A stretch of 7,852 bases of DNA from Deltaproteobacteria bacterium. GTDB taxonomy: Bacteria; Myxococcota_A; UBA9160. The DNA lies in the NCBI GenBank assembly GCA_003520425.1, contig DOUU01000083.1, positions 1 to 7,852 on the forward strand. The letters are read 5' to 3'. The first letter of the stretch is position 1. The number at the start of each line of letters is the position of its first letter. This document shows, piece after piece, positions 5,360 to 7,852 of the stretch. The notes below the pieces were generated by a model. It was not told the DNA's origin and ran no database searches. It worked only from the letters and a program-made list of their open reading frames with translations. A program made the position numbers and the translations under genes.

Positions 5360-6160
5360 TCACGTCGGCCCCGCGGGTATCTGCGGAGCGCGCCGCTTCA
5401 AAAGGTTCACCGGAAGGGACCGATTCATCGCCGCGTAGCTCTCCGCCGCGAGATCGATCAGATCGCATTCGAGATCGTACCGGAACCGCTCGAGAGCGGC
5501 ACAGTCAGCGAGACTCTCTGGCGCGAAGTACGGGCCGCGGCAGGCGTAGACGATCTGATTGAAGGGGAGTGGAATCGCGGTGTGGTCCCACGTAGGGAGG
5601 CGGAGGTAGCGGCGATACCAGGTACGCACGAGCGCGATCGGCTTCCCGCATCTACTCGCGATGACGATTTCGCCAGTTTTCATTCGATAGGCGGGACCCT
5701 TCGACCCGTCGACGGTAAGCCCGTACATCACCCCGTGATGGGAGCGCATGTGCGCTACGAGGTCGTCGATCACACCCTCACGGTGACGTGAGCGCGACGT
5801 CGTCGAGCCACCGCGGAAGACGGTGTATCCGCAGCGCAGGAGCAGTCGCGTGATCACCTCACCGACGTCACCGCGGCTGGCCAGCGTGTGCCCATGGATG
5901 CCGGCCCACCAATATCCATAAGCGACGGTGAACACTTCCTCGTGCCAGAGAAGCGCAACCACGCCGTCGTACTTGTCGCACAAGCGCTGGAGGTCCCCGA
6001 AGTTCCCAAGATCGACTTGACTCGTCGACCACACAAACCGCATGTACAGCATGTAGAGCGGCGGTGCGACGGCCGCGGTGAGTGCTGCGAGCGGCCGCGT
6101 GAAGAATCGGCGCACGCGGCGGCGTACGCGCGTCCATGCGCTGCGGATCCTGGCCTTCAT
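5360..6160 (-). CDS. DUF374 family protein (lysophospholipid acyltransferase-like)
   Basis: A 266-residue protein of the DUF374 family, related to the lysophospholipid/lipid A acyltransferase superfamily. These probably act at the inner face of the cytoplasmic membrane in lipid or LPS synthesis. A basic N-terminus (1-22) precedes one hydrophobic anchor (about 22-44). The family core follows: VVALLWHEEVF (67-77), where His73 is at the place of the acyltransferase histidine; HTLASRGDVGEVITRLLLRC (91-110); YTVFRGGSTTSRSR (112-125); and GLTVDGSKGPAYRMKTG (147-163), the most diagnostic block. Length is slightly above the usual 200-230. The ATG is preceded by GGAG with seven bases spacing. The start overlaps the stop of a short upstream frame (ATGA). 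A clear terminator follows. The precise substrate is unknown. Confidence 0.88.
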   Translation of the reverse strand: MKARIRSAWTRVRRRVRRFFTRPLAALTAAVAPPLYMLYMRFVWSTSQVDLGNFGDLQRLCDKYDGVVALLWHEEVFTVAYGYWWAGIHGHTLASRGDVGEVITRLLLRCGYTVFRGGSTTSRSRHREGVIDDLVAHMRSHHGVMYGLTVDGSKGPAYRMKTGEIVIASRCGKPIALVRTWYRRYLRLPTWDHTAIPLPFNQIVYACRGPYFAPESLADCAALERFRYDLECDLIDLAAESYAAMNRSLPVNLLKRRAPQIPAGPT

Positions 6161-6258
6161 CGTGACACTCCACAGGGCACGAGATTTGGGCTTCTCTCGG
6201 CGTCCTCCTCCGGGCGGGTCATGCCCCGCCCTGGGACGAAGGCTGTGACGGCGAGCAT
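6157..6258 (-). CDS. Possible short coupled reading frame upstream of DUF374
   Basis: A 33-codon frame from ATG at 6258 ends in TGA overlapping the DUF374 ATG (ATGA). It contains MTRPEEDAERSPNLVPCGVSR, which has more balanced composition than a random GC-rich frame. In-frame sequence before the ATG (SGESLQLKDLPEDM) also looks protein-like and is open back to a TAG near 6317. It could be a small coupled protein, the tail of a lost upstream gene, or chance. No good Shine-Dalgarno is seen. Confidence 0.25.
   Translation of the reverse strand: MLAVTAFVPGRGMTRPEEDAERSPNLVPCGVSR
6212..6231. repeat. GC hairpin upstream of DUF374
   Basis: GGGCGGG (6212-6218) pairs with CCCGCCC (6225-6231) around TCATGC. 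It lies about 50 bp before the DUF374 start on the minus strand and could affect its leader, or be a by-product of coding sequence in the short frame. The rest of 6259-6411 shows no further gene. Confidence 0.35.
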
Positions 6259-6414
6259 GTCTTCGGGAAGATCCTTCAGTTGAAGAGATTCGCCACTCTC
6301 AGCGGAGTCCCGAGGCTAGCGGCGCTGCACCCGGTGGGGGTCTTTCGCGTGATCCGCCCATCCCACACCACAGTGGACGCAACGCGCCTCCGTGCGTGCA
6401 CTCGCTATCGTATC

Positions 6415-6425
6415 TGGACTCCTCC
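6415..6425 (+). repeat. Right subterminal inverted repeat of the IS
   Basis: TGGACTCCTCC matches the reverse complement of 7770-7780 at all 11 positions. It sits about 235 bp beyond the transposase stop, the position expected for the right end. Confidence 0.8.
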
Positions 6426-6658
6426 TGCAAGCTAGTTCCTTCTTCTCGACGGATCGGCTGCTCAAGGTCCGACTGCAATCGTATCTTCGGCCTCGTGTGT
6501 GGAGCGCTTGCGCTCCGGGCGATGATGGAAATCCGCGCGCTGGGAGCCATTCAGGACACCGGCCTTAGCGGCCAACGATTCCCATCGGCTTGTCCCTGCG
6601 CCGGTCAGGACCGGTGCGCCATCACCGTCGTGCACTCGAAAGCAGTCTGTTCGGTGGA
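6426..6658 (-). ncRNA. Predicted IS1111 seek/bridge RNA region
   Basis: IS110-family elements make a structured guide RNA that pairs with both the target and the element ends; in the IS1111 group it is encoded between the transposase stop and the right end. This non-coding stretch fits by position and size. Visible dyads: GGAGCGC/GCGCTCC (6501-6507, 6510-6516); GGCC/GGCC around 6561-6573; and GCGCCGGT with ACCG..GCGC (6598-6619, two-base bulge). Short exact matches to the IS-flank junctions occur at 6478-6486 and 6551-6558. Exact RNA ends cannot be read from sequence alone. Confidence 0.5.
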
Positions 6659-7697
6659 TTACTCCTTCGTTGTTGGGGCGGCGACGTCGAAGGGGCGTTC
6701 GTTGCGCCACACTGCCCAGACGATCCGAGCCAGCTTGTTGGCGAGTGCGACCGCAGCCTTGTTATGGCCCCGCACCCGCTCACGATCGAGCACCCATTTG
6801 CGTAGGCGATCACCGTCGACGGTTCTCTTCTTCGCGTTCCAAAGCACAGCCCTGGCACCGTGAATCAGCAGCATCCGTAGGTACGGATCCCCGCGTTTAC
6901 TGATCGCTCCCAGGCGCCGCCGCAGCCCACTCGACGACTCCCGAGGCGTCAGACCGAGGTAGCTCGCAAAGTGGCGTCCCGACGGGAAGCGCTGGACGTC
7001 GCCCACGAAGGCGACGAGCGCGGTCGCCGTAAGCAGGCCCACGCCGGGGATCGTGCGCAGTCGGGTGAGGACTTCGCTCTCCCTCGTCATGTTCTCGAGC
7101 GAGCACTACCTCATGCACGCGTACCTCGAGCTCGCGGATCTCGCGCGTCGTCTCGGAAAGCACGGCCCGCAGCGCGTCGGGGAGCCTGGAGTCGGCGTCC
7201 GAGACGAGCGCAACCACGAAAGGCACGACCTGGCGGGCACCGACCGGAATCGCGAAGCCGAGCTCACGCAGCAGCCCCCGCAGCGTGTTGAGCCGCGCGG
7301 TCCGCGTGGCCATCCAGGCCGAGCGGAGACGATGGAGCCCCGCGAGCACATGCTGATCAACGGACTTGACCGGGACCGGGCGGACGCCGTCGTTGCGAAT
7401 CGCCTCGAGCAGGCCTTTGGCGTCCGCGCCATCGGTCTTGTTGCGCAGCACGTAAGGGCGTACTGCGTGCGGTGGGAGCAGCACCACCCGGTGGCCGCGA
7501 GCTCCCGCCTCACGACCCCAGTAGTGCGCCGTCCCGCAAGCCTCCATCACCACCGTGGCCGGAGCCTGCTCCGCAAGGAAACGCGAGAACTGTCCCCGCG
7601 AAGGTCGCCGGCGCAGGCTCACCTTCCCGGGTCGTACCGATACCGCGACCTCGAACACGGACTTCGCCAGATCCACTGCGATCGTCGTAGAATGCAT
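6659..7697 (-). pseudogene. IS1111-group transposase with one-base frameshift
   Basis: The first segment, from ATG at 7697 with GGAGGAGGAAG before it, carries the RuvC-like DEDD domain. Asp9 is in IAVDLAKSVFEVAV, Glu52 in VVMEACGTAHYW, and Asp89 and Asp92 in NKTDGADAK. The MEACG.AHYW form is typical of the IS1111 branch. Around residue 200 (7091-7104) the sequence jumps by one base. The second frame then supplies the C-terminal Transposase_20 domain: LRTIPGVGLLTATALVAFVG, the Ser region LGLTPRESSSGLRRRLGAIS and KRGDPYLRMLLIHGA, ending at 6659. Together the segments give about 343 residues, a full-length family member. The pattern is one extra base relative to an intact gene. Programmed frameshifting is not usual in this group, so it is probably a recent inactivating mutation or a sequencing error. 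The first frame alone runs on to 6897 in nonsense sequence. Confidence 0.85.
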
Positions 7698-7769
7698 CTC
7701 GGACTTCCTCCTCCCCGGAGCTGTCCAGGGCGCAAGGCGACTCTGGCACTTGATGCCGCGCGAGTCGCT

Positions 7770-7780
7770 GGAGGAGTCCA
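7770..7780 (-). repeat. Left subterminal inverted repeat of the IS
   Basis: GGAGGAGTCCA on the plus strand is the exact complement of 6415-6425. It lies 73 bp before the transposase start. The short leader leaves little room for a guide RNA on this side, which agrees with the IS1111 rather than the IS110 layout. Confidence 0.8.
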
Positions 7781-7787
7781 TCTCATC

Positions 7788-7852
7788 AGGACAGCAGCGC
7801 GGCATGATTCAAAGCGCGGCCAGCGCGTCTTAGAGGGCCGGAAGGGAGTTAA
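7788..7852. other. Left flank of the IS, no feature recognised
   Basis: Sixty-five bases beyond the IS with no reading frame, RNA gene or repeat that I can support. Joining it to the other flank (before 6412) does not rebuild an obvious gene. Confidence 0.4.

What the first reader, a model, noticed from the sequence alone, without database searches (positions are those of the whole stretch)
6426..6658. Putative IS1111 guide RNA containing matches to both IS-flank junctions
The nine bases across the right junction, ATCGTATCT (6407-6415: flank, predicted IS end and first base of the repeat), recur at 6478-6486. The eight bases across the left junction, TCAGGACA (7786-7793), recur at 6551-6558. 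Both copies lie in the non-coding stretch where IS1111 elements encode their guide RNA. By simple counting a 9-mer match of this kind is expected about once in 50-100 such comparisons, so it is suggestive and not proof. Guides in known bridge RNAs pair with opposite target strands, whereas both matches here are in the same sense; that is either a misreading or a real difference in layout.
Basis: partly seen in the sequence, partly recalled or inferred. Interest (0 to 1): 0.72.

Follow-up and report, generated by a model that had tools for sequence, protein, structure and literature searches.

The report
IS1111 guide RNA, four predicted guides
A jumping DNA element in this bacterium carries a stretch predicted to make a guide RNA whose short segments match the element's own insertion site, as in known programmable insertion elements, while one of the two matches first noticed likely reads the element's own end instead.

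Summary
The window holds a 1,378-bp IS1111-family element (6411-7788, minus strand) with a frameshifted transposase. Its downstream non-coding region encodes a conserved structured RNA (13 of 23 predicted pairs show changes on both sides). 6551-6558 is the left-target guide: it varies between copies and follows each copy's left flank. 6478-6486 is not a right-target guide: it stays nearly unchanged when flanks change and follows the element's right end. The right-target guide is at 6575-6584, across the same internal loop and in opposite sense, so the 'same sense' puzzle disappears and the layout is the published IS1111 one. A 90%-identical second copy in the same genome has different guides fitting its own flanks. 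In a held-out set found by RNA model, left guides match their own flanks 6.72/10 against 3.39/10 for other flanks, right guides 4.24 against 2.83 (n=25, 0 of 20,000 permutations each), and the right-end guide equals the element's end in 28 of 30. A new member of a known kind; the additions are donor-guide evidence and natural retargeting between near-identical copies.

The parts
6411..7788 (-). whole IS1111-type element, 1,378 bp with 7-base left and 3-base right extensions
   Evidence: inverted repeats; second copy L002 with other flanks fixes the ends except for a shared GAT
6415..6425 (-). right subterminal inverted repeat (11 bases)
   Evidence: exact 11-base inverted match to 7770-7780
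7770..7780 (-). left subterminal inverted repeat (11 bases)
6659..7697 (-). transposase gene in two frames (frameshift near 7107)
   Evidence: PF01548 and PF02371; tblastn in two pieces
6461..6620 (-). guide RNA core, match to covariance model R1 (132.5 bits; the window is one of the 15 training sequences)
6575..6584 (-). right-target guide TGGGAATCGT, 5' side of the target loop; 7 of 10 complementary to the top strand (IS sense) of the right flank, 6402-6411
6523..6529 (-). putative left-end (donor) guide TCCATCA, 5 of 7 against the left IS end
   Evidence: modest: own 5.5 of 7 against 5.0, 97 of 20,000 permutations, n=14
6595..6600 (-). outer stem of the target loop, 5' arm (pairs with 6538-6543; one A-A mismatch in the window)
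   Evidence: helix 1, 6 of 6 pairs with changes on both sides
6538..6543 (-). outer stem of the target loop, 3' arm

Best explanation
The window carries a frameshifted IS1111-family insertion sequence whose downstream non-coding region is predicted to be transcribed into a bridge/seek-type guide RNA that likely pairs with opposite strands of the two target flanks through one internal loop and with the element's own two ends through a second loop. Shown from sequence: a conserved structure; two target guides that follow each copy's flanks; a segment that follows the IS right end. Inferred: that the RNA is made, that these segments pair with DNA, and that the transposase of the intact sister copy L002 could act on this copy in trans. 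[quoted passage not shown] The order in both loops would be the reverse of IS621. If the IS ends abut in a circle, TTGCAG and TGAGAT 17 bases apart would form a promoter, the published way such RNAs are thought to be made.
For: Structure: 23 pairs, 13 with changes on both sides; 94.1% of cells paired against 79.5% in shuffles and 31-43% in slid controls. Target guides: left 7.06 of 10 against 4.97 with other flanks, 0 of 20,000 permutations, n=17; right 6.5 against 5.03, 1 of 20,000, n=10; window and L002 rank first for both. Scan of 4,822 combinations: the nine best all lie at these two places. Sister copies differ in 12 of 24 guide columns but only 20 of 226 others of the non-coding region, Fisher p 2.4e-6. 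Held out: left 6.72 against 3.39, right 4.24 against 2.83, 0 of 20,000 each, n=25; right-end guide 28 of 30. Right-end guide: own end type in 37 of 40, other types 2 of 240. Layout agrees with PMC11187229 (top-strand match 5' of bottom-strand match).
Against: No expression data. The window's transposase is frameshifted. Single-sequence folds are not exceptional (z -0.86 and -1.72). The window's right guide matches only 7 of 10. Own flank is not preferred by L046 on the left or L047, L071, L013, L082 on the right. In the held-out set the own right flank is best or tied in only 7 of 25 (9 of 25 with three registers), and 42 of 72 matches had no ends found and were left out. Some held-out elements (L115, L144) share the left guide of the training element L087. 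The left-end guide is weak. Related elements are not independent, so permutation counts overstate certainty. The published 82-nt ISEc11 RNA was enough for transposition, so a donor loop further downstream may not be essential.
Confidence: 0.9

Rival explanations
1. One reading: 6478-6486 and 6551-6558 are the two target guides, both in the same sense, a layout unlike known bridge RNAs.
For: Both exact matches exist; the 9-base one arises in 9 of 2,000 resamples.
Against: The 6478-6486 segment is conserved in relatives with other right flanks; from the last IS base outwards it prefers its own flank only 4.5 against 4.1 of 8; a better right guide exists at 6575-6584.
Confidence: 0.02
2. The 6478-6486 segment follows the IS right end for another reason than pairing, for example because RNA segment and end are copied together when elements diverge, or because the same protein surface reads both.
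For: IS end and RNA change together along lineages, so the 37 of 40 and 28 of 30 reflect fewer independent events; the published 82-nt RNA is sufficient for ISEc11.
Against: Eight right-end types are mirrored over the two sets (GATA, TATA, TACA, TCTA, TAGA, TGTA; CATA, CACA added); [quoted passage not shown]
Confidence: 0.2
3. The region is decayed and the matches in the window are coincidence.
For: The window transposase is frameshifted and the single-sequence fold is not exceptional.
Against: Covariation, own-flank preference in both sets, and the window's rank 1 for both guides; an intact sister copy exists.
Confidence: 0.03

Closest known systems
IS1111-family seekRNA (ISEc11, ISPa11, ISKpn4, ISPst6; Siddiquee et al. 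2024, PMC11187229)
   Same: Non-coding region downstream of the transposase, subterminal inverted repeats with 7- and 3-base extensions, two target segments with the top-strand match 5' of the bottom-strand match, natural retargeting among relatives.
   Different: Here the two retargeted copies are 90% identical and in one genome (the published ISEc11/ISXne4 transposases are 72% identical); a further segment follows the right IS end, which that paper's sections that I read do not describe.
IS621 / IS110 bridge RNA (Durrant et al. 2024, PMC11208160)
   Same: Two loops, one for target and one for donor, each with a left and a right guide pairing with opposite strands; [quoted passage not shown]
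   Different: RNA lies in the right end, not the left; the 5' side of the loops would pair with the top strand here and with the bottom strand in IS621.
IS1111 elements that target attC sites (ISKpn4, ISPst6, ISPa25, named in PMC11187229)
   Same: Relatives L008, L009, L013, L047, L071 and the L078-L086 group have GTTRRRY-like right flanks next to the IS and AAC-rich right guides (the attC label is recalled knowledge applied to these letters).
   Different: The window and L002 right flanks do not look attC-like by eye, and their right guides lack the AAC segment.

Membership tests
IS1111 family | subterminal inverted repeats of about 11-13 bp | tested here: met
   11 bases, exact
IS1111 family | 7-base left and 3-base right extensions beyond the repeats | tested here: met
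   TGATGAG and ATA, the same in L002 with other flanks; a GAT shared by both ends leaves a 3-base ambiguity and no empty site was found
IS1111 family | DEDD transposase of 330-350 aa with a GL-P----S(T)G motif | tested here: met
   PF01548 and PF02371 pieces; sister protein 346 aa with GLTPRESSSG; the window's own gene is frameshifted
IS1111 family | long non-coding region downstream of the transposase gene | tested here: met
   6414-6658, downstream of the stop at 6659-6661
IS1111 seekRNA | two target matches, top-strand match 5' of bottom-strand match | tested here: met
IS1111 seekRNA | RNA made and bound by the transposase | not testable with these tools
   needs RNA sequencing of the purified complex
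IS1111 family | promoter formed when the ends abut in a circle | tested here: inconclusive
   TTG box at 17-base spacing in 14 of the 15 closer elements and 0 of the 20 more distant ones at that same spacing; activity untested
IS621-type bridge RNA | RNA encoded in the left end, 5' side of each loop pairing with the bottom strand | tested here: not met
   RNA lies in the right end and the strand order of the target loop is reversed; so not filed as IS621-type
bridge RNA in the wide sense | a donor loop matching both IS ends | tested here: inconclusive
   right end strongly supported, left end weakly; pairing not tested

The most novel reading that the evidence does not exclude
IS1111 RNAs are full four-guide bridge RNAs whose two loops both run in the opposite strand order to IS621, and near-identical copies retarget by replacing about 24 guide bases while the rest of the element, including the donor guide, is kept; the 'long seekRNA' of unknown role is the form that carries the donor loop.
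Probability: 0.55. Interest if true: 0.6.

Novelty: new member of a known kind. Interest (0 to 1): 0.45.

Why it matters
It gives a model (R1) of an IS1111-type RNA that matched 55 of 398 sampled genomes of one phylum, the training genome G382 among them, while no Rfam 15 family matched window 6300-7852 at E up to 1. It supplies donor-guide evidence over eight right-end types, and a pair of near-identical copies in one genome with different targets. [quoted passage not shown]

Tried and rejected
Same-sense two-guide layout: rejected (L002). Empty-site search: parts of the flank next to the right end recur elsewhere in the genome (G000:C189, C97), but none of the pieces examined spans the insertion point. 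Rfam: nothing at E up to 1. Viral contigs: two distant relatives only. A 10-base repeat CGTGCACTCG (6395-6404 and 6629-6638) was considered as a guide; L002 has a different word there and an unrelated flank, so I take it as chance. A first motif search for the right-end guide gave 39 of 42, with several motif tries per element and two counted matches (L016, L027) that the stricter form did not keep; the stricter form with a control gave 37 of 40 (L032 and L047 not in it, misses L071, L016, L027). An attC-like target for the window was looked for by eye and not seen.

Rows dropped: for I picked 23 loci by eye from the listings (protein identity at least 47%, an RNA loop or an end present); L066 had no RNA loop; one search used 17 (left) and 10 (right) after leaving out four further copies (L078, L080, L085, L086), and repeats the test with them (21 and 14; left 7.43 against 5.34, right 6.29 against 5.01). 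A1 holds 15 sequences; L064 was in the trial alignment but not in A1. One search used 30 of 72 held-out matches (both ends found) and 25 distinct guide pairs; L104 and L111 had no ends found by the script. Of the hits without an automatic locus I fetched 40 places, not every one.

Full report
What is there. On the minus strand the window holds an IS1111-type element. Its 11-base subterminal inverted repeats are at 6415-6425 and 7770-7780; with 7- and 3-base extensions the ends are 7788 and 6411. The transposase gene (7697 to 6659) has both IS110/IS1111 domains but lies in two frames. A second copy, L002 (G000:C476), is 90% identical with an intact 346-aa protein that NCBIfam names 'IS110 family RNA-guided transposase'. 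The copies have different flanks: in IS sense GCTGTCC before and CGATAGC after in the window, GTCACC before and CATGTCTTA after in L002.

By resampling, the right match is a 9-in-2,000 event and the left one 89-in-2,000.

The RNA. I collected relatives with the L002 protein and aligned 15 non-coding cores (A1). RNAalifold gives 23 pairs, 13 with changes on both sides; the five measures exceed nearly all shuffles (0 to 4 of 500 reach them) and the slid controls. The structure is a stem closing a large internal loop, then a multiloop. Folding single sequences is unremarkable (z -0.86 and -1.72), so the case rests on covariation.

Which segments read the target. For each element I compared the 10 bases on either side of the internal loop with its own flanks and with those of the others. 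Left guide: 7.06 of 10 against 4.97, 0 of 20,000 permutations as high, n=17. Right guide: 6.5 against 5.03, 1 of 20,000, n=10. The window scores 8 and 7, L002 7 and 8, both ranking first. Not every element fits: L046 on the left and L047, L071, L013, L082 on the right do not prefer their own flank. A scan without preset positions (4,822 combinations) put these same two places in its nine best: the left flank in sense, overlapping 6550-6559, and the right flank in antisense, overlapping 6575-6584.

What the 6478-6486 match is. The segment AGATACGA is kept in the closest relatives whatever their right flank; from the last IS base outwards it hardly prefers its own flank (4.5 against 4.1 of 8). 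But its GATA equals the last four bases of the IS. Across more distant elements the ends TATA, TACA, TCTA, TAGA and TGTA are each mirrored in the RNA: own type found in 37 of 40, other types in 2 of 240 trials; the misses are L071, L016 and L027. This is what a donor guide would look like, and Durrant et al. [quoted passage not shown] A segment for the left end (TCCATCA type) has modest support (own 5.5 of 7 against 5.0, 97 of 20,000, n=14).

Held-out test. I built a covariance model from A1 and searched genomes with it: matches in 5 of 79 genomes of the order (E up to 0.001), 4 of 90 of the class and 55 of 398 of the phylum of G382 (E up to 1e-8; these sets include training genomes). In 72 matches other than the window and L002 I read guides from the model positions used before. 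Both ends were found for 30. The right-end guide equals the IS end in 28 of 30; for the two misses (L149, L169) the ends called by the script look wrong to me. For 25 distinct guide pairs the left guide scores 6.72 against 3.39 and the right 4.24 against 2.83, 0 of 20,000 permutations each; the own left flank is best or tied in 19 of 25, the own right flank in 7 of 25, or 9 of 25 with three registers. The right-guide signal is real but weaker, partly because its register shifts (L181: 0 fixed, 8 shifted). Some of these elements (L115, L144) carry the left guide of the training element L087 and are not fully independent.

Retargeting between sister copies. Over the columns of the two target guides the window and L002 agree in 12 of 24, against 206 of 226 in the rest of the non-coding region (Fisher p 2.4e-6). 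So two nearly identical elements in one genome carry different guides, each fitting its own site. A published natural pair is more distant (ISEc11 and ISXne4 transposases 72% identical, PMC11187229).

Expression. If the ends abut in a circle, the window would form TTGCAG, 17 bases, TGAGAT. A TTG box at that spacing is present in 14 of the 15 closer elements and in 0 of the 20 more distant ones listed. This is inference from sequence. The window's own transposase is frameshifted, so movement of this copy would need another protein such as the sister's.

Limits. There are no expression data; related elements inflate significance; the published 82-nt RNA with target matches is enough for ISEc11, so whether a donor loop is needed is open. 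Literature on IS1111 RNAs was searched only, in an open-licence library, and figures were not visible to me, so I make no claim of priority for the donor guides.

Verdict. A real guide RNA of a known kind, misread in one of its two halves. Interest comes from the donor-guide covariation and from the near-identical pair of copies with different targets.

Noticed in passing
window 6141-6326 and 6335-6383: Parts of the flank beside the right IS end recur in the same genome: 90% at G000:C189:1-183 and 84% at G000:C97:113-161; neither reaches the insertion point.
   Followed up: partly
window 6395-6404 and 6629-6638: A 10-base word (CGTGCACTCG) occurs in the right flank and in the non-coding region; not kept in L002, likely chance.
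   Followed up: partly
L075 and L163: In L075 the 3' part of the RNA and the right end are repeated in tandem; L163 holds two RNA matches 353 bases apart. Possibly recombination at the element's own guide or end.
   Followed up: no
L003 (G000:C348): A more distant transposase piece, 35% identical to residues 140-338 of P0001, in the same genome.
   Followed up: no
P0001 (L002:157-1194): The C-terminal part weakly matches the NCBIfam model of TIGR-Tas endonucleases (34.2 bits, cut-off 100).
   Followed up: no
window 5360-6160, minus strand: An open frame of 266 aa next to the IS has no NCBIfam match at E up to 0.001.
   Followed up: no
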